This document shows, in pieces, positions 1,094 through 25,872 of a DNA stretch of 64,000 nt (position 1 is its first letter; the number at the start of each line of letters is the position of its first letter). The position numbers and the translations under genes are program-made. The notes beneath the pieces were generated by a model that saw nothing but the letters and a program-made list of their open reading frames with translations, was not told the DNA's origin and made no database searches. The stretch comes from a bacterium (GTDB taxonomy: Bacteria; Zixibacteria; MSB-5A5; WJJR01), in contig JAKAKI010000081.1 of assembly GCA_021813505.1 (NCBI GenBank), positions 62,001 through 126,000 of the forward strand, read 5' to 3'.

Positions 1094-1609
1094 ATGAAGC
1101 GGATCGGAATTGTGCTGGCAATCGCGGCCTGTGTGGCGCTGGTCACCGGACCGGCATGGGGACAGGATTCGGCAAAGGCCGCGCCTGCCAAAGCGGCGGC
1201 GAAGCATCAGTATGTCGGCGAGACGAAGTGCAAGATGTGCCACAAGGCCGAGTACGAATCGTGGATGACCACGAAGCACGCGAAGGCCTGGGCCTCGTTG
1301 AAGCCGGAAGAGCAGAAGAAGGCCGAGTGCAACGAGTGCCATATGACCGGCAAGACCGCATCCGACTCGATTTTGGTCAATGTTGGATGTGAATCCTGCC
1401 ACGGACCGGGCTCCGATTACAAGGCGATGAACACGATGAAGAACGCGAAGCTGGCCGCCGAGGCAGGATTGATGCCGATCACCGAGGCGACTTGCACACG
1501 TTGCCATAACAAGAAGAGCCCGAACTTCAAGGAATTCGACCTCACCAAAGCCAAGGATCCGGCAGCGGGCGGAGTCCACAAGCATAGTCCCAAGGCCACC
1601 AAGGGCTAA
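1094..1609 (+). CDS. Periplasmic tetraheme cytochrome c (cytochrome c554-like)
   Basis: A 171-residue secreted cytochrome. Residues 1-23 form a Sec signal peptide ending at AWG. Four CXXCH heme sites follow: CKMCH (46-50), CNECH (79-83), CESCH (99-103) and CTRCH (134-138). The block YVGETKCKMCHKAEYESWMT is typical of cytochrome c554/c-prime family proteins. A clear Shine-Dalgarno (AAAGGAG) precedes the ATG. The gene leads a run whose next member, the Rieske protein, starts one base after this stop by the longer reading, so it is very likely the soluble or loosely bound electron acceptor of the bc complex. Physiological partner and potentials are inferred. Confidence 0.88.
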   Translation: MKRIGIVLAIAACVALVTGPAWGQDSAKAAPAKAAAKHQYVGETKCKMCHKAEYESWMTTKHAKAWASLKPEEQKKAECNECHMTGKTASDSILVNVGCESCHGPGSDYKAMNTMKNAKLAAEAGLMPITEATCTRCHNKKSPNFKEFDLTKAKDPAAGGVHKHSPKATKG

Positions 1610-1610
1610 G

Positions 1611-2072
1611 ATGAGTCAAAGGCAGGACATAACCCCCGGCGGTTCGCCCATGAACCGCCGGGGATTTTTCGATATCTTCCTGGGGGGTGGAATCGCCGCT
1701 CTCGGCGCCGCGGTCCTCTACCCGCTTGTCCGTTTCGTGATTCCTCCGGAACAGCCGGAAGCAACCGTCTCACAGGTGGTGGCTGCGAAAGTGGGCGAAC
1801 TGGCCCCGAATTCGGGGAAGATATTCCGATTTGGCAAGGACCCGGCGATTCTGGTAATGACACCGAACGGACAGTACCGGGCGTTTACCGCCATCTGCAC
1901 CCACTTGGACTGCACCGTCCAGTACAGTTCGGAGATGCAGCAAATCTGGTGTGCCTGTCACAACGGGCATTACGATCTTAATGGCAACAACATCTCCGGC
2001 CCGCCTCCGGCGCCGCTGGCAGCCTACAGTGTCTCCGTGCGCGGCGATCAGATTCTTGTGAGCAAGGCATGA
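1611..2072 (+). CDS. Rieske iron-sulfur protein of a cytochrome bc complex
   Basis: This subunit takes the first electron from quinol at the positive-side Qo site and passes it to cytochrome c. Both Rieske boxes are intact: CTHLDC (96-101) and CACH (114-117), giving 2Fe-2S ligands C96, H98, C114 and H117 and the stabilising disulfide pair C101/C116. The N-terminus carries a twin-arginine-like NRRGFFDIF motif followed by one membrane helix (about residues 22-44), as expected for a Tat-exported, membrane-anchored Rieske protein. An ATG at 1650 (MNRRGFF) is an equally plausible start and gives 140 residues. The stop overlaps the cytochrome b start by four bases (ATGA), implying translational coupling. 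Confidence 0.93.
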
Positions 2073-3145
2073 GCGAACCCGCCACGCATTCGGGGATTTC
2101 CCAGTGGCTCGATGAGCGGCTTGGCTGGCACGCCATCAAAGAGCTCGCGCTGCACAAGCGCGTGCCGATGCACAAGCATTCGATCTGGTATTACCTCGGC
2201 GGCATGACGCTGTTTTGTTTTCTGGTCCAGATCGTCACGGGGATTTTCCTGCTGTTGTACTACCGTCCCACTGCCGAGGCAGCGTTCGAGTCGGTCGAGT
2301 TCATCATGACCGATGTGAAATTCGGCTGGCTGATCCGCTCGATCCATTCGTGGTCGGCGAATCTGATGATTTTCTTTGCCTTCGTGCACATGTTCTCGGT
2401 GTTCTTCTTGCGGGCTTACCGGCGTCCGAGGGAACTGACCTGGGTGTCTGGCGCGTTTCTCCTGTTCCTTTCTCTGGGATTCGGTTTCTCGGGATATTTG
2501 CTGCCGTGGAACCAGCTTGCGTATTTCGCCACGAAAGTCGGGACCGATATACTCGGCCAGATTCCTTTGATCGGCGAATGGCTGCTGACGGTCGCGCGCG
2601 GCGGGGAAGATGTCACCGGCGCCACCTTGACACGCTTCTTTGGCGTGCATGTCGCGGTGCTGCCGATGATTTCAACCTTCTTCCTTTTGGGCCATCTGGC
2701 GCTCGTGCAGAAGCAGGGCATGAGTGTCCCGATCGGCGAGGAGTACAAGAAGACGCGGCAGATGCCGTTCATCCCCAATTTCGCGCTGCGGGATTTGGTG
2801 GGCTGGACCTTGGCGCTCGGAATCCTGGTGTTGCTGGCTTCGTTATTCCCGTGGGAATTGGGTGAGAAGGCTGATCCCTTGGCCTCGGCTCCGGCGGGGA
2901 TCCGGCCGGAATGGTTCTTCTGCTTTATGTTCCAGACGCTCAAGTACATTCCCGGCAAAGTCTGGTTCATCAATGGCGAACTTCTGGGCATCATCGCCTT
3001 CGGACTGGGCGGAGCGGCGCTGGTTTTGGTGCCGTTCTTGGATCGCCGTGCTGCGCGTGAGGAGAGGCATAAGTGGCTGCCCGTGATCGGCTGGTTGGTG
3101 ATCCTCTACATCATCGTGTTCACTGTGCTGGCATACGTCGTATGA
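2069..3145 (+). CDS. Cytochrome b of a bc complex, b6/subunit IV fused form
   Basis: The membrane core of a quinol:cytochrome c oxidoreductase, 358 residues with about seven to eight helices. Four heme-b ligands are visible at H93, H107, H194 and H209. The 15-residue step between the last pair is the b6-type spacing rather than the 14-residue step of mitochondrial cytochrome b. The Qo-site PEWY motif appears as PEWF (280-283). The C-terminal part corresponds to subunit IV, so both halves are in one chain. It overlaps the Rieske gene upstream and the nonaheme cytochrome gene downstream by four bases each, so the three are translated as a unit. Menaquinol as donor is inferred from the likely lineage. 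Confidence 0.94.
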
Positions 3146-4443
3146 AGATGTTGCGAACCGATTTCATCCTCCGATTCCTGATCGCGGTTTCGATCGCGGT
3201 TTTGGCGACGTTCGTGCTGGCACCGCAGGATACGCGTGCGAAGGCAACCGGCAATTCCTGCGTCGACTGCCACTCGGAAATACCCGACAAGCAGCTCAGT
3301 GACCCTGTAAAGGGTGTCGAGAGCGATATCCACCATGCCAAGGGACTCGGTTGCCAGGATTGCCATGGCGGCGATCCGACCAAGGGGATGGCCGAGGGGG
3401 ATCCGGAACTGGCTCACAATCCCGCGAAAGGGTTCGTTGGCGCGCCGACCTCAAAGGAAATTCCGGATTTCTGCGCCAAGTGCCACTCCGATGTCGAGTT
3501 CATGAAGCGGTACAACCCCAAGCTACGGGTCGACCAATTGCTGGAATACCGTTCCAGCAAGCACGGGAAGCTTCTGGAAACGGGTGACGGGAAGGTCGCC
3601 ACCTGCGTGTCATGCCACGGCGTTCACGGCATTCTCGCGGTCTCTGACACGCGTTCGCCGGTCTTCCGTGCCAATGCCCCCGGGACGTGCGCCAAGTGCC
3701 ATGCCAACGCCGGATACATGAAGCCGTACGGCATTCCGACCAACCAGTTCGACCTGTACAAGTCTTCTGTGCATGGCATGCAGCTTCTGGAAAAGGGCGA
3801 TCTCGCAGCGCCGGCCTGCAACAACTGCCATGGCAACCACGGCGCAACGCCACCGGGGCTGACATCGATTGCGTTCGCTTGCGGCGAATGCCACGCCAAC
3901 AATCGCGACTTCTTTAACCAAAGCCCGCATAAAGAAGCCTACACGAAGATGGGCCTGGGCGAATGCACCACCTGCCATAACCATCACGACATCGCCAAGC
4001 CGACCGACGCCATGCTGGGAGTGGGGGAGCGCGCCTTGTGTGTGCGCTGTCACAGCCAGGGCGACAAAGGATTCGAGACGGCTGCGAAGATGGCCGTCGA
4101 GTTGGATACTCTCAAACTGACGCTGAATCTGGCGCATGAACTTCTGACGCGTGCGGAGCAGGGTGGCATCAACGTCCGGCTTGGCAAGTACGACCTGCAT
4201 ACCGCAGATGATGCGTTGATCAAAGCGCGCACGGCAATCCACTATTTCGACTTCGACAAGTTCCATGAGGTGTCCGGAGCGGGAGTGACTGAGGCGCGGC
4301 AGGTGATCACGCAGGGTGAAGAGGCGCTCCACGATCTGCGAATTCGGCAGATTGGACTTGGCGTCTCGGTGCCGATCATCCTTTGGGTGGCACTGGCACT
4401 TTATCTGCGGATCCGGCGGATGGAACGCGAGAAACCGTTCTAG
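3142..4443 (+). CDS. Membrane-anchored nonaheme cytochrome c associated with the bc complex
   Basis: A 433-residue multiheme cytochrome from the ATG at 3142, whose four-base overlap with the cytochrome b stop decides the start. Residues 1-31 are a signal sequence. Nine CXXCH sites follow in order: CVDCH, CQDCH, CAKCH, CVSCH, CAKCH, CNNCH, CGECH, CTTCH and CVRCH. After a helical region without heme sites, one hydrophobic segment ([19 protein letters not shown]) and a basic tail end the protein, so the heme domain should sit in the periplasm and stay tethered to the inner membrane. It takes the place of the usual cytochrome c1 or f in this operon. The NapC/NrfH and cytochrome c3-like folds are the nearest families I can suggest. 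Confidence 0.9.
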
Positions 4444-4604
4444 TCAGACCAGGCATCAGTAAATTCACCATAGCAGGTTTCCAGAATTATACCGCAACGG
4501 CATTGAATTCTTCTTGCCCCGATGGGAGCAAGTCCCCTTCCTTTGAAAAGAAAGCAGGATTGAAAAGAATGCAGGATTTGTCACCTTTTCACAAGGAGGA
4601 TAAT

Positions 4605-5789
4605 GTGATCAAAAGACTGGTGCCAATGGCGATCATAGCGCTCGCAATTGTGGGGTGCAGTGATAAGGACAATGGAGTGAAACCGCCGAGCTATGATCTC
4701 ACCAAGCTCAACGCGATCAAAGTCACGACGGACCCGGTTGTGGACGGCGCCAGCTCGGATGCCATGTGGGCCGACGCGCCCGCCCTGACCGTGAGCCTCG
4801 GGGACGGGATGGATGAAACCCCGCCGAATTGCACTTCGTGCCATTCCCGCAGCAGCGCCACGACGGTGACCTTGAAGGCCGTCCACAGCGCGACGAAGCT
4901 GACAATATTGGCGAGCTGGCCGGATGACGATGCCAGTTTCACGCGGTCGGAATCCTGGTCGTGGACCAACGGCGCCTGGGCGAAGCCGAATGGCGATCAA
5001 TCCGAGGACCGGATTGCATTCTTTTGGCCGATCGGAGCAATCACCAGTGATGTAGCAGGGCAGTCAACCGGCGGCTGCATGACAAAGTGCCATACAACTG
5101 ATGTCCATCCGGGAAATGACTTGGAAGATGAAGCGTACCTGGCAACGGGCACGGCTGACAGCTGGCACATGAAAGCTGCACGCTTTCTTCCGGCCACTTC
5201 AGCGAGCGGCTCGGGATTGACTATTGATGCGACCACACATCAGGTGACCGGCGGAACTGTCCGCATGGCCGGCTGGATCGACGACAAATATAACGCGCAA
5301 TGGAGCGAAGCCAATGCACCGGATGGCGGCCGTTATGCCGATGCGGGAGGCGGCGCTGAGTCCCGCAACCGGATCACGGACAAGTCCCGTCCGAAGTATA
5401 TGGAAAAGGCCCCGACGGATTTCATGGATGCCATGATCCTGACGCAGTCGGAGATCGACGCGGGGCAGACGGCGGGTGACGCAACGACCGGGGTCAGCGA
5501 TGCGGACGCCGCGCTATACTGGCCAGCTTACGCGGCATTGAAAGCGATCGTTCCGGAGAGAATCCTCAAGAACCCCGGTGGAAGCCGTGCGGATATTATC
5601 CAGGGAGGGGTCTGGGCCAGTGGCAGGTGGACGGTTGAGATGCAGCGGACTCTGACCACTACCGACGTGGAGCATGACATTCAGCTCGCCGTGGGGCAGG
5701 AATACATTTTTGGCGTGGCTACGATGGACAACGCTGGAGGTGACGAGCACAAGGCCTCTACGAAACACATTCTGAAAGTACTGGAGTAG
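4605..5789 (+). CDS. Ethylbenzene-dehydrogenase-type heme-binding lipoprotein with a CXXCH site
   Basis: A 394-residue predicted lipoprotein. The GTG start at 4605 is chosen because AAGGAGGA lies five bases before it and the product then begins with a short hydrophobic signal and lipobox IVGC (Cys18). The sequence DPVVDGASSDAMWADAP, the segment KLTILASWPDDDASFTRSESW and the later DSWHMKAAR resemble the EB_dh heme-b-binding domain of ethylbenzene and DMSO dehydrogenase gamma subunits. Unusually, it also has a c-type site CTSCH (76-80) and a CMTKCH (158-163) with one extra residue between the cysteines. The frame continues open to 4383, but that extension overlaps the upstream gene. It lies 161 bases after the nonaheme gene; a periplasmic electron shuttle is inferred. 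Confidence 0.75.
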   Translation: MIKRLVPMAIIALAIVGCSDKDNGVKPPSYDLTKLNAIKVTTDPVVDGASSDAMWADAPALTVSLGDGMDETPPNCTSCHSRSSATTVTLKAVHSATKLTILASWPDDDASFTRSESWSWTNGAWAKPNGDQSEDRIAFFWPIGAITSDVAGQSTGGCMTKCHTTDVHPGNDLEDEAYLATGTADSWHMKAARFLPATSASGSGLTIDATTHQVTGGTVRMAGWIDDKYNAQWSEANAPDGGRYADAGGGAESRNRITDKSRPKYMEKAPTDFMDAMILTQSEIDAGQTAGDATTGVSDADAALYWPAYAALKAIVPERILKNPGGSRADIIQGGVWASGRWTVEMQRTLTTTDVEHDIQLAVGQEYIFGVATMDNAGGDEHKASTKHILKVLE

Positions 5790-5880
5790 GATCTCTGAGG
5801 ACTTCGGCGACGGGCACAAGGCCCCTGACCAGTCGAGTCTCGTGAGTAAGGGCCGAAGGCCTTCCGGGAAGCGGTAGATG

Positions 5881-5916
5881 AGGATGTTCGTGCGAATGCG
5901 TGAACATCCTTTTCTT
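5881..5916 (+). terminator. Rho-independent terminator after the heme lipoprotein gene
   Basis: AGGATGTTC (5881-5889) and GAACATCCT (5902-5910) form a perfect 9-bp stem with a 12-base loop, followed by TTTCTT. It separates the bc/lipoprotein unit from the barrel and 14-heme unit. The remainder of 5917-6060 holds nothing I recognise. Confidence 0.75.
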
Positions 5917-6071
5917 ATGCTCGCGTTCGGCATGTCCCGAGGCAAGGACAGCCGCCTGGGATCCTGTCCTCACGAGATATAGTCTTTACAGTCAAGAATT
6001 CTGTTGCGGACGGAGCGGAGCCGGTCTACCGTATTGCCTGAGCCATCTACTGGTGGCAGGTGGCTTCAGTG

Positions 6072-6108
6072 CAATGGCCGGGGAACCGGCGACGCAAAGG
6101 GGGCATTG
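6072..6108 (+). promoter_or_regulatory. Structured leader hairpin with GGAA loop and GACGCAAAG bulge
   Basis: CAATG (6072-6076) pairs with CATTG (6104-6108). Inside, GCCGG (6077-6081) pairs with CCGGC (6086-6090) around a GGAA tetraloop, and GACGCAAAG (6091-6099) bulges on the 3' side. A GNRA-capped helix followed by GACGCAAAG is the layout of the P2 arm of GEMM-I (cyclic di-GMP/cGAMP) riboswitches. The second arm of that class is not visible, since the ATG of the next gene follows at once. The GGGGG at 6099-6103 could serve as the ribosome-binding site, which the fold would mask. A resemblance, not an identification. Confidence 0.3.
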
Positions 6109-6109
6109 G

Positions 6110-7399
6110 ATGAGAAAGCGGCATGCGGTTCTGGCCACATTGCTAGTCTTGGGATGTGCGTCCCTGACCCAGGCAACGACGTTGTCCGGACGGGTCGGCC
6201 TGTCGGCCTATGTATGGCAGTATCAGGAGGTGGACTCCAGCAAGACCCGCCATATCCAGAACACTGGCAGTCTCAGTCTGAGATTGGGCCAGATTGGCGG
6301 TCAGGACCTGGAGATTCTGACAGCCCTGCGCGGGCGGATCGACCTGCGCAACTCTGGCGACAACCTGAGCGATTACCATGTTTACGACCTGCAGGTGCGG
6401 TGGAAGAACATCGCCAAGTTTGCAGACTTGACCGGTGGCCGCCATCAGATCTTCTGGCCCAATGGCGCGGTGTCCATCGACGGCGGGTCGGTGAAGCTCC
6501 ATCCGCGGTGCGGCGCGGAGTTGAGCGGCTATATCGGCGTCTTGGCGCCGGAGGATGGCCGGTTCCGGCTGACCACCTACGACAAGGGGCACGCCTTCGG
6601 CGCGCAGTTCGCTTATCACTCGAACTTCACCGGCGATCTGGCGGTGAGTTTCGCGCAGAAGAATGCCGCCCGCGTGTACGAGTCCGGGACACCAACACTC
6701 AGCAGTCTGGCATCGCAGACATTGGGACTCGATTGGCGCCACCCGGTGCGGGGATTCGGCCGGGTATACGCGAACGCGATTTACCAGATACCGACAGAGC
6801 GCATTGACCGCGTGAACCTGTCGGTGCTGTGGCGGGCCAGTGATGCGTGGTCCGCCGAGGCACAGTTCCGCTATCGCCGTCCCAATCTGGCCTACAACTC
6901 GATCTTCTGGGTATTTACAGAGTCCCACTACAGCGAAGGACGGCTCAATCTCAGCTATCGCATCAATCCGTTGTGGTCGGTGAATGCGGGCGGAGTGCAC
7001 GTGGACTTGGGGGACACGAAATCGGATCGCTTCGAGTTGGGCGTGGGCCACAAGTACTTCAGTGTGATGCTGAATGCCAAGACGGGGTGGTCGGGCAAGA
7101 CGATCGGCGTCAGCGGTGATGCCTATTACCCGGTCAACGACAGTTGGACGGTGCGCGGCGGACTGCATGTTTCGAGCTACGAGGTGATGGAGGATTCGCC
7201 CGAGAAGAACTCTGAGGCGTCTGTCGTCGCCGGCGGCACCTGGCATTGGATGCCGCAATCGACAATCGATGCGGATCTTCAGTACGTCACGCAGAAGATC
7301 AAAGTACCAAGCAATTATGGTGACGGCAGTAACGACCTGCGTTTCATGCTGCGGCTGTCGTGGTGGTTCTTCAACCGGCTGGGATCGAAAGTCGGATGA
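6110..7399 (+). CDS. Outer-membrane beta-barrel protein of the cytochrome locus
   Basis: A 429-residue exported protein. The ATG at 6110 gives a good signal peptide (MRKRHAVLATLLVLGCASLTQA). The rest is rich in alternating hydrophobic/polar strands with aromatic girdle residues, glycine-rich turns and a C-terminal stretch RFMLRLSWWFFNRLGSKVG. It shows no CXXCH, enzyme motif or internal repeat that I recognise. Together with the 14-heme cytochrome gene that follows 59 bases later, it looks like the porin of a porin-cytochrome conduit, although sequence identity to MtrB or PioB cannot be judged by eye. It could instead be a general porin or a barrel of unknown ligand. Confidence 0.7.
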   Translation: MRKRHAVLATLLVLGCASLTQATTLSGRVGLSAYVWQYQEVDSSKTRHIQNTGSLSLRLGQIGGQDLEILTALRGRIDLRNSGDNLSDYHVYDLQVRWKNIAKFADLTGGRHQIFWPNGAVSIDGGSVKLHPRCGAELSGYIGVLAPEDGRFRLTTYDKGHAFGAQFAYHSNFTGDLAVSFAQKNAARVYESGTPTLSSLASQTLGLDWRHPVRGFGRVYANAIYQIPTERIDRVNLSVLWRASDAWSAEAQFRYRRPNLAYNSIFWVFTESHYSEGRLNLSYRINPLWSVNAGGVHVDLGDTKSDRFELGVGHKYFSVMLNAKTGWSGKTIGVSGDAYYPVNDSWTVRGGLHVSSYEVMEDSPEKNSEASVVAGGTWHWMPQSTIDADLQYVTQKIKVPSNYGDGSNDLRFMLRLSWWFFNRLGSKVG

Positions 7400-7458
7400 A
7401 TCACGGGTGAGCAGATTGCAGAGGTTTATCGGATAAACCAACGACAGGGAAGGCAGAC

Positions 7459-8604
7459 ATGAGACACAGAACGATATTGCTGATGATCGGGGTGGCCGTC
7501 GCGTTGACAGCGGCTGTCGCCAGTTCCAAATCCAAGGAGGCGGTGATCATGTTCTCACACAGCTACCATCTCACCGAGGTGGGGGCGAAGTGCGAGGATT
7601 GCCATGCGGATGCCGCCGGCGCGACGGAATCCTCGGCGAACCTGCTCCCGAAGATGGAGAGCTGTTACAAGTGCCATGATCAGCAGGGGACCGAGTGCAA
7701 CGTCTGCCACACGGAGAGCAATGTCCAGGATGGGAAATACTCGTCCTACGTGGCGCCGGCACGCGAGCTGAAGTTCTCTCACGCGTCACATGTCGGGACA
7801 CAGAAACTCGATTGTCAGACCTGCCATGCCGCGATTGAAAAATCGTCGAAAGTTCCCTCCAAGGGGATTCCCGAGATGGCAGTGTGCGTTGACTGCCATC
7901 GGCAGAAGGGCATTACGGATGATTGCAGCGCCTGCCACACACAAGTCGGGTTGCGCATGCCGGCGGACCATGGGCCGGACTGGGTGTTGAATCACGAGTT
8001 TGAGGCCCGTGGCGACGCCAGGAAGTGCGAGACCTGCCATCGTCCGTCGTACTGCGAGGAATGCCACCAGGGCGCGGCACTGGGTATGTCGATTCGCAAC
8101 AAGAAGGACGCCCCGGCTGACCGTCTCGGCCCGCTGGCCCCCGCACATGATGGGAAGAGCCTCCTGATCATCCAGCGCATCCATGATCTCAACTTCCGGT
8201 ACACACACGGCGCCGATGTCAAATCGAAGACGATGGATTGCGGCACATGCCATGCGACCGCCACATTCTGCGCGGCCTGCCATAATCCCGAGAACGACCT
8301 GGGCCGTTTAAAGCCGGTGTGGCATGAAGTGGCGGGGTTTGGCGCGGCCGGCAAGCATGCCGAGATGGCGCGCAAGGATATCGAAGTGTGCGCAGCGTGC
8401 CATGATCGCGATGGCGCCGATCCGGTTTGTATGAGCTGCCACCGTTCAGCCGTGTCGCCCCACCCGAACGGATTCATGAAAGATGTGAATGGCCCGTGGC
8501 ACGATGATAACAACGCTGTTTGTTTCGTGTGTCATGATCCGGGAGGACGACATCCGGGCCAGGGGTTCTGTGGAAGGTGTCACGGGGCCAAGAGTGACGA
8601 TTAG
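7459..8604 (+). CDS. Fourteen-heme cytochrome c
   Basis: A 381-residue secreted cytochrome starting with MRHRTILLMIGVAVALTAAVASS, a Sec signal. I count fourteen CXXCH sites: CEDCH, CYKCH, CNVCH, CQTCH, CVDCH, CSACH, CETCH, CEECH, CGTCH, CAACH, CAACH, CMSCH, CFVCH and CGRCH, with extra His residues (for example FSHSYH, FSHASH) able to serve as distal ligands, as in cytochrome c3/c7-type folds. There is no lipobox or membrane anchor, so it should be free in the periplasm or held within the barrel encoded just upstream. Heme density (one per about 27 residues) is that of an electron wire. A strong terminator follows at once, so it closes the unit. Confidence 0.9.
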   Translation: MRHRTILLMIGVAVALTAAVASSKSKEAVIMFSHSYHLTEVGAKCEDCHADAAGATESSANLLPKMESCYKCHDQQGTECNVCHTESNVQDGKYSSYVAPARELKFSHASHVGTQKLDCQTCHAAIEKSSKVPSKGIPEMAVCVDCHRQKGITDDCSACHTQVGLRMPADHGPDWVLNHEFEARGDARKCETCHRPSYCEECHQGAALGMSIRNKKDAPADRLGPLAPAHDGKSLLIIQRIHDLNFRYTHGADVKSKTMDCGTCHATATFCAACHNPENDLGRLKPVWHEVAGFGAAGKHAEMARKDIEVCAACHDRDGADPVCMSCHRSAVSPHPNGFMKDVNGPWHDDNNAVCFVCHDPGGRHPGQGFCGRCHGAKSDD

Positions 8605-8637: not shown

Positions 8638-8673
8638 AGGGGATCCCGGGGAATCGGGATCCCCTGCTTTTTT
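8638..8673 (+). terminator. Rho-independent terminator after the 14-heme cytochrome gene
   Basis: Perfect 11-bp stem (8638-8648 with 8655-8665), a 6-base loop, then GC and six T residues (8668-8673). It marks the 3' end of the respiratory locus. Confidence 0.88.
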
Positions 8674-22649: not shown

Positions 22650-22927
22650 AAAGGGTTCGTGCACCCGCCTTCGACCCCGACCGATGGGGCAGTTCTGATC
22701 ACCGACTCCGGCCGAGCGACCCTGCGGCACACGAAAAATAACGCCGACCGCTGCTACCTTCCGGTCCTGACGGGGTTAAGCATCTTTCCGTTGCGCAAGA
22801 CCCGGCCCTCAACATCGACTGGTCCGACCTGCGGTCCACCGTTCTGACAGGCCTCGGGCGGTCTTCAGCCCCGGTATAGCGGGTTCCGGGTACAGGGCAC
22901 CGCTAACTCCCCGCCTAGCACGAACCC
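22650..22927 (-). ncRNA. ffs: Signal recognition particle RNA, large bacterial type
   Basis: Read on the minus strand, the RNA opens GGGTTCGTGCTAGGCGGGG and has the Alu-domain block GTTAGCGGTGCCCTGTACCC. The domain IV core GTCAGGACCGGAAGGTAGCAGC lies around 22757-22780, and GTGCCGCAGGG comes near the 3' part. The ends GGGTTCGTGC and GCACGAACCC pair perfectly (22918-22927 with 22653-22662), and a run of five T residues follows (22652-22648). The size of about 275 bases matches the Bacillus-type 6S-like scRNA that retains the Alu domain. Position directly before dnaX is the same as in Bacillus subtilis. It pairs with Ffh, which is not in this window. Confidence 0.95.
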
Positions 22928-25796: not shown

Positions 25797-25872
25797 TGGT
25801 GGAGCAGAGCGGGATCGAACCGCCGACCTGTACGTTGCGAACGTACCGCTCTCCCAGCTGAGCTACTGCCCC
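25797..25872 (-). tRNA. tRNA-Ala, anticodon CGC
   Basis: Full cloverleaf on the minus strand: acceptor GGGGCAG / CTGCTCC, D-arm GCTCAGCTGGGAGAGC, anticodon arm GTACG-TTCGCAA-CGTAC (anticodon CGC) and T-arm GGCGG-TTCGATC-CCGCT. Discriminator A and an encoded CCA end the gene. The G3-U70 wobble pair, the alanine identity element, is present. It reads GCG codons. Confidence 0.97.

What the first reader, a model, noticed from the sequence alone, without database searches (positions are those of the whole stretch)
6110..8604. Barrel and 14-heme cytochrome as a separate transcription unit
A terminator (5881-5916) precedes and another (8638-8673) follows these two genes. They may therefore be expressed separately from the bc complex, as expected for a regulated outer-membrane conduit. 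The gene order (porin first) and 14 hemes differ from the 10-heme MtrA type.
Basis: partly seen in the sequence, partly recalled or inferred. Interest (0 to 1): 0.5.

Follow-up and report, generated by a model that had tools for sequence, protein, structure and literature searches.

The report
Porin–cytochrome conduit beside a bc complex
Two neighbouring genes in an uncultured Zixibacteria genome most likely build a protein wire through the outer membrane for trading electrons with the outside; the pair is a widespread kind of module, and its repeated placement next to an inner-membrane quinol-oxidising complex is the more interesting part.

Summary
In detail: a barrel (6110-7399) and a 14-CXXCH cytochrome (7459-8604), flanked by hairpins at 5880-5911 and 8638-8665. 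Both hairpins persist in the one same-genus genome available, the upstream one with three pair-preserving changes in a diverged spacer, so a separate unit in this genus is likely, although no sigma-70-like promoter was found. It is not a general rule: in a same-family genome bc genes and barrel are 146 bp apart without a terminator, and in some Kryptonia and Ignavibacteria loci the bc multiheme gene abuts or overlaps the barrel. The pair is widespread: 79 of 80 named loci (Zixibacteria, Ignavibacteria, Kryptonia, Calditrichota, KSB1) have the barrel beside a 13-14-heme cytochrome. The barrel models with 22 strands (pLDDT 86). Strand number and heme number fall in the published range of Pcc conduits, including Ignavibacterium album, so this is a new member of a known kind. 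Less usual are recurrent linkage to a Rieske/cytochrome b complex (cytochrome b upstream in 16 of 66 loci outside the family), absence of an adjacent surface cytochrome (a homologue lies elsewhere in the genome), an EB_dh lipoprotein beside the bc genes, and a conserved untranslated leader. Electron direction and substrate are not shown.

The parts
6110..7399 (+). 22-stranded outer-membrane beta-barrel (porin part of the conduit), 429 aa with N-terminal signal-like helix
   Evidence: AF2 pLDDT 85.9, pTM 0.75, 22 strands after helix 2-21; family in 31 of 146 genomes and beside the cytochrome in 79 of 80 named loci
7459..8604 (+). 14-heme (14 CXXCH) c-type cytochrome, 381 aa, about 25.6 residues per heme if 22 residues are taken as signal peptide
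   Evidence: Pfam Cytochrome_C7 and Mtrc-MtrF_II-IV; most heme motifs invariant or nearly so in 26 sequences
5880..5911 (+). terminator-like hairpin between the EB_dh gene and the barrel
   Evidence: z -5.07; kept in G001 with three pair-preserving changes
8638..8665 (+). terminator-like hairpin after the cytochrome
   Evidence: z -3.50; kept in G001
5985..6109 (+). conserved untranslated leader of the barrel; the last 69 bases are 63/69 identical in G001 (the 56 before them 44/57), with a GGAA-capped hairpin followed by GACGCAAAG
   Evidence: no Rfam family; full-length match only in G000 and G001 among 38 genomes
1094..1609 (+). tetraheme c554-like cytochrome heading the bc cluster; c554-like genes lie upstream of the barrel in 54 of 68 named loci
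1611..2072 (+). Rieske iron-sulfur protein (an in-frame ATG at 1650 is also possible)
2069..3145 (+). cytochrome b of the bc complex
   Evidence: 76-97% identity in 7 of the 8 relatives searched
3142..4443 (+). 9-heme cytochrome with a C-terminal hydrophobic segment (read from sequence); start ATG 3142 overlaps the cytochrome b stop
   Evidence: homologues follow cytochrome b in relatives
4605..5789 (+). EB_dh-domain lipoprotein (GTG start after AAGGAGG; lipobox-like LAIVGC) with one CXXCH and one CX3CH
   Evidence: (EB_dh E=4.6e-22); a distant relative follows the bc cluster in G006, where no conduit adjoins

Best explanation
The two genes encode a Pcc-type porin-cytochrome conduit. A 22-stranded barrel in the outer membrane sheathes a 14-heme cytochrome whose closely spaced hemes carry electrons across the membrane. 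Electrons most likely come from quinol through the adjacent Rieske/cytochrome b/9-heme complex and the c554-like tetraheme carrier, and leave to an extracellular acceptor, perhaps through a surface 5-6-heme lipoprotein now encoded elsewhere in the genome. In this genus the pair is transcribed separately from the bc cluster, starting between 5912 and 6110 and ending at 8638-8673. Shown: gene content, hairpins and their conservation in one sister genome, the strand count of the model, family-wide pairing and recurrent bc linkage. Inferred: insertion of the cytochrome in the barrel, the electron path and direction, and the promoter.
For: Barrel beside a 13-14-heme cytochrome in 79 of 80 named loci, the exception L109 beginning at a contig end; gap 67 bp or less in all 79. 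Barrel model with 22 strands, pLDDT 85.9; best VIA matches are TonB-dependent receptor barrels, which I recall as 22-stranded (5t3r_D Z 19.8, rmsd 3.8, 368 aligned), with ushers and Occ porins within about 3 Z. 14 CXXCH at about 25.6 residues per heme, against 25.1 quoted for MtrA (PMC7399161 section 18). The cytochrome profile matches the multiheme chain 3ov0 (E 1.3e-28) and more weakly 6r2q_A (E 8.9e-5; its PDB label reads 'Cystathionine beta-synthase', I recall 6r2q as the MtrCAB complex). A gene with 3 or more CXXCH follows in 72 of 77 named loci with enough sequence, 51 of the 72 with a lipobox-like motif. Cytochrome b upstream on the same strand in 16 of 66 loci outside the family. Published Pcc ranges fit.
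Against: No multiheme gene follows the pair in window or G001. No experiment; no complex model was possible. The cytochrome model is poor (pLDDT 52.5). The barrel has no family above cut-off and was not compared with Geobacter OmbB or ExtB. In most of the family the bc cluster and the pair are apart, so the bc complex need not be the donor. Foldseek's best matches are ordinary porins and ushers at low TM-score (0.22-0.56). No promoter found.
Confidence: 0.8

Rival explanations
1. The same conduit runs inward: it takes electrons from Fe(II), a mineral or a partner cell and feeds them to the bc complex working in reverse or to an oxidase, as MtoAB and PioAB do.
For: The genes do not fix direction. 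PMC4245776 passages name both extracellular reduction and Fe(II) oxidation for the Mtr system. [quoted passage not shown]
Against: Relatives named include Melioribacter roseus and Stygiobacter electus, which I recall as heterotrophs able to reduce external acceptors. Multiheme genes with lipobox-like starts downstream in many relatives (51 of 72) resemble reduction systems.
Confidence: 0.15
2. The barrel is a substrate-specific channel and the cytochrome a periplasmic reductase of the imported compound, as proposed for Geobacter ExtI with selenite and tellurite.
For: The Geobacter ext cluster also joins a porin, multiheme cytochromes, Rieske ExtO and cytochrome b ExtP (PMC5877670 passages). 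Weak sub-threshold porin-type hits.
Against: No porin family above cut-off for the window barrel; 22 strands against 12 predicted for ExtI; all 14 motifs are plain CXXCH; constant pairing over several phyla with variable downstream cytochromes.
Confidence: 0.08
3. The upstream hairpin does not terminate fully and the genes from 1094 to 8604 are one operon with an internal attenuator.
For: The T tract is short and interrupted, and no promoter was found after it. Related loci have bc and conduit genes overlapping or a few bases apart. All these genes are on one strand.
Against: Hairpin kept with pair-preserving changes in a diverged spacer, and a conserved leader after it.
Confidence: 0.3

Closest known systems
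Pcc porin-cytochrome conduits, in particular Ignavibacterium album IALB_1839/1838/1837 and Geobacter OmbB-OmaB-OmcB
   Same: Porin beside a periplasmic multiheme cytochrome, 22 strands within the published 18-22, 14 hemes within the published 5-14, 381 aa close to the 400 aa of IALB_1838
   Different: No adjacent surface cytochrome in this genus; adjacent bc complex and EB_dh lipoprotein; Zixibacteria are not named in PMC4245776 or PMC7399161
Iron-cycling genes already reported in Zixibacteria MAGs
   Same: PMC9769843 passages report mtrAB-type genes and PMC8478452 passages report iron oxidation and reduction genes in Zixibacteria, so a conduit in this phylum is not a surprise
   Different: The passages seen do not describe this pair, its bc neighbour or its hairpins; whether their mtrAB calls are this family was not checked
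MtrAB / PioAB / DmsEF
   Same: Barrel plus multiheme cytochrome, same working principle
   Different: 14 rather than 10 hemes, 22 rather than 28 predicted strands, no match of the window barrel to the MtrB_PioB model at E<=1
Geobacter extHIJKLMNOPQS cluster (ExtI)
   Same: Porin, multiheme cytochromes, Rieske and cytochrome b in one cluster; the window cytochrome b scores 223.5 bits against the ExtP model, cut-off 290
   Different: No rhodanese or ExtKL-type gene identified among the genes of 1094-8604; different predicted strand number

Membership tests
Pcc porin-cytochrome conduit (Shi et al. 2014 sense) | porin-like gene next to a periplasmic multiheme c-type cytochrome gene | tested here: met
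   periplasmic location inferred from the signal-like N-terminus only
Pcc porin-cytochrome conduit (Shi et al. 2014 sense) | 18-22 outer-membrane strands | tested here: met
   22 strands in the AF2 model, pLDDT 85.9; range from PMC4245776
Pcc porin-cytochrome conduit (Shi et al. 2014 sense) | 5-14 hemes in the periplasmic cytochrome | tested here: met
   14 CXXCH
Pcc porin-cytochrome conduit (Shi et al. 2014 sense) | adjacent surface cytochrome gene (present in most, not all, Pcc clusters, so not defining) | tested here: not met
   none in window or G001; homologue of the family's 5-heme lipoprotein on another contig, G000:C9:130614-131624
Pcc porin-cytochrome conduit (Shi et al. 2014 sense) | sequence relationship of the barrel to OmbB or IALB_1839 | not tested
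   those sequences were not on hand; Ignavibacteria relatives were found
Pcc porin-cytochrome conduit (Shi et al. [quoted passage not shown]
   needs biochemistry
MtrAB/PioAB | match to the MtrB_PioB barrel model (TIGR03509, cut-off 240 bits) above cut-off | tested here: not met
   no match of the window barrel at E<=1; 1 of 30 family barrels reaches E 0.0017; nothing in the genome, but the 14 control genomes were silent too
MtrAB/PioAB | 10-heme DmsE-type cytochrome (TIGR03508) above cut-off | tested here: not met
   13.1 bits against 192.2; 14 hemes
ExtI-type cluster | porin with multiheme cytochromes plus Rieske and cytochrome b in one cluster | tested here: met
   window order against PMC5877670 passages
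ExtI-type cluster | porin related to ExtI | tested here: inconclusive
   no ExtI model among the hits; it was not verified that the library holds one
Substrate-specific porin families | match of the window barrel above a curated cut-off | tested here: not met
   best sub-threshold: Toluene_X 15.9 of 29.7 bits, YaiO 17.9 of 32

The most novel reading that the evidence does not exclude
The bc complex, its tetraheme carrier and the 14-heme conduit form one dedicated respiratory chain, a Q-cycle complex wired straight to the cell surface, that has been assembled repeatedly across Zixibacteria, Ignavibacteria and Kryptonia. In this genus it was split into two transcription units so that the conduit could be controlled on its own through a structured leader RNA.
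Probability: 0.25. Interest if true: 0.65.

Novelty: new member of a known kind. Interest (0 to 1): 0.42.

Why it matters
How electrons get from the quinone pool to outer-membrane conduits is unsettled in most uncultured lineages. A bc complex recurrently next to a conduit in gene order names a likely donor and makes the link testable, for instance in cultured Melioribacter or Stygiobacter relatives. It also suggests that these bacteria could conserve energy by a Q-cycle during extracellular respiration.

Tried and rejected
Riboswitch in the leader: the GCAAT-hairpin(GGAA)-GACGCAAAG stretch recalls half of a GEMM (c-di-GMP) riboswitch from memory, but Rfam at E 10 gave only seven far sub-threshold matches in 5785-6200, none of them a riboswitch, and nothing at gathering threshold in 9 class loci and 12 named loci. 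A pattern made after the site finds only this one place in the genome. The leader as a whole is matched only in G000 and G001 of 38 genomes; the other rows are matches of about 15-37 bases at E 0.008-1. Kept as an observation only.

EB_dh lipoprotein as surface partner of the conduit: weakened, because in G006 a distant relative follows the bc cluster without a conduit and G002 has the bc-conduit join without it. L097 (Calditrichota) has an EB_dh-like gene upstream and no downstream multiheme gene, which speaks the other way.

bc-conduit linkage as ancestral: the cytochrome tree needs at least 13 changes of the bc-linked label over 89 labelled rows (19 linked, 70 not), so linkage is labile. 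The label is noisy: at most about 4.7 kb upstream of the barrel was visible in the named loci, and 12 of 80 lacked a barrel or 2.6 kb there. The tree is a quick one and warns of long branches meeting.

The cytochrome model was too poor for a fold search and none was run. Foldseek ranks common porins and ushers first with TM 0.22-0.56. MtrB does not appear in the 50 VIA rows shown, which excludes nothing.

Literature: seven searches. No listing or passage I saw describes a bc complex joined to a conduit in Zixibacteria or Ignavibacteria; that is no proof that none exists. Seen as passages: PMC4245776, PMC7399161 (plus section 18 in full), PMC6295460, PMC11475568, PMC5317091, PMC10654088, PMC5877670, PMC8478452, PMC9769843. 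All other papers were seen only in search listings.

Full report
What is there. The window lies on contig C87 of a 3.9-Mb genome. The nearest named relative found is a Candidatus Zixiibacteriota MAG whose cytochrome is 95% identical. Genes on the + strand: MazG (40-717), c554-like tetraheme cytochrome (1094-1609), Rieske (1611-2072), cytochrome b (2069-3145), 9-heme cytochrome with a hydrophobic C-terminus (3142-4443), EB_dh-domain lipoprotein (4605-5789), hairpin (5880-5911), barrel (6110-7399), 14-heme cytochrome (7459-8604), hairpin (8638-8665); then an OmpA-type gene on the other strand.

The hairpins. Both score well against shuffles (z -5.07 and -3.50). Because the scan also flags a hairpin inside the Rieske coding sequence, conservation is the better test. 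Against G001 the spacer before the upstream hairpin is 46/91 identical, the hairpin 28/32, the stretch after it 46/75, then 44/57, and the 69 bases before the barrel start 63/69. The three stem differences all keep pairing and the fourth lies in the loop. This is what a selected terminator followed by a selected leader would look like, but it rests on two genomes, and no sigma-70-like promoter was found in the leader of either.

The barrel. It has no Pfam or NCBIfam match above cut-off and no meaningful PDB sequence match (none; one chance-level hit, E 0.49). With 29 relatives as an alignment, AlphaFold2 gives pLDDT 85.9 and 22 strands after a signal-like helix. VIA-align puts TonB-dependent receptor barrels first (5t3r_D Z 19.8, rmsd 3.8 over 368 residues; 5fp2_A Z 19.5, rmsd 3.7 over 345), with ushers and Occ porins close behind. 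This says 'large barrel', not function.

The cytochrome. It has 14 CXXCH in 381 aa, Cytochrome_C7 and MtrC/MtrF-type Pfam matches, and a profile match to the multiheme chain 3ov0 (E 1.3e-28) and weakly to 6r2q_A. Besides the heme motifs, H242, N245 and H250 are invariant in 26 sequences. The structure model is weak (pLDDT 52.5).

Distribution. Barrel relatives occur in 31 of 146 genomes. Of 30 loci refetched (29 other genomes and the own second pair), 29 have a cytochrome relative beside the barrel, split in L060; L061 ends at the contig edge. A search of named genomes gave 154 relatives of the cytochrome, 80 kept: Zixibacteria, Ignavibacteria including Melioribacter roseus and Stygiobacter electus, Kryptonia, Calditrichota, KSB1 and MAGs labelled Bacteroidetes. 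In 79 of 80 the barrel sits directly upstream; 76 of 80 cytochromes have 14 CXXCH and 4 have 13. In 72 of 77 loci with 700 bp downstream a gene with 3 or more CXXCH follows, 69 of the 72 with 4-11. Cytochrome b lies upstream on the same strand in 18 of 68 loci (16 of 66 without the family's own), and a c554-like gene in 54 of 68, within 300 bp of the barrel in 45. A cytochrome b within 4.7 kb of a given gene would be expected in well under 1% of loci by chance (my estimate from genome size, not a run control). In 9 of 68 a bc-type multiheme gene ends within 200 bp of the barrel, all nine with a Rieske gene upstream; in L067, L069 and L134 it overlaps the longest-ORF barrel start by 4 bases.

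Within the family. A cytochrome b of this type is present in 7 of 8 relatives at 76-97% identity, G007 having none. The cluster MazG-c554-Rieske-b-9-heme is seen free of the conduit in G004 and G006. In G003 the c554-Rieske-b-9-heme part lies about 11 kb from the pair. In G005 and G008 the upstream end meets a contig edge and no conduit adjoins. It is joined to the conduit in G000, G001 and G002. An EB_dh gene follows it in G000 and G001, and a distant one (E 8e-8) in G006. The 5-heme lipoprotein that follows the pair in G003, G005 and G006 (there with one in-frame TGA) has a 47%-identical homologue on contig C9 in this genome, with no barrel seen within the 12 kb fetched. So the conduit may be a module that came to lie next to the bc cluster while its surface partner stayed behind; that history is inference.

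Two conduits in one genome. A second barrel-cytochrome pair lies on C43. In the cytochrome tree the focal copy falls on the side of the Ignavibacteria-type sequences (branch 99 by SH-aLRT, quick tree), the second copy with other genomes of the class. Next to the second pair is a 2252-aa ORF with a lipobox-like start, 56 CXXCH and 11 CX4CH.

Judgement. The pair fits the published Pcc description on strand number, heme number and gene pairing (PMC4245776 passages), including the proposal there that large 12-14-heme cytochromes could span the membrane without a surface partner. It is not an MtrAB member by the tests run. A Rieske/cytochrome b pair in one cluster with a porin has a Geobacter precedent, the ext cluster (PMC5877670 passages), and iron-cycling genes including mtrAB have been reported in Zixibacteria (PMC8478452 and PMC9769843 passages). 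The finding is therefore real and mostly ordinary. The recurrent bc linkage and the conserved leader are what deserve follow-up.

Noticed in passing
L032:1755-8513 (G000:C43, minus strand): A 2252-aa ORF with a lipobox-like start, 56 CXXCH and 11 CX4CH motifs in repeats of about 192 residues, directly after the genome's second barrel-cytochrome pair; probably a giant surface cytochrome.
   Followed up: partly
window 5985-6109: Untranslated leader conserved between two genomes, with a GGAA-capped hairpin followed by GACGCAAAG; no Rfam family.
   Followed up: partly
window 1634-1663: A 13-pair hairpin with a U run lies inside the start of the Rieske gene, with an in-frame ATG in its loop; a hairpin is also predicted there in G001, G004 and G006. 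Probably an effect of the PGG...RRG coding repeat, but an attenuator is not excluded.
   Followed up: partly
window 4605-5789: EB_dh-domain lipoprotein with one CXXCH and one CX3CH next to a bc complex; an EB_dh-like heme b protein beside a Rieske/cytochrome b complex recalls archaeal CbsA (from memory).
   Followed up: partly
L098, gene after the cytochrome at 6001-7197: In this Melioribacteraceae locus the gene after the 14-heme cytochrome has 28 CXXCH, against 4-11 in 69 of 72 loci.
   Followed up: no
window 22657-22923: Bacterial large SRP RNA on the minus strand (162.5 bits), with a tRNA at 25800-25872.
   Followed up: no
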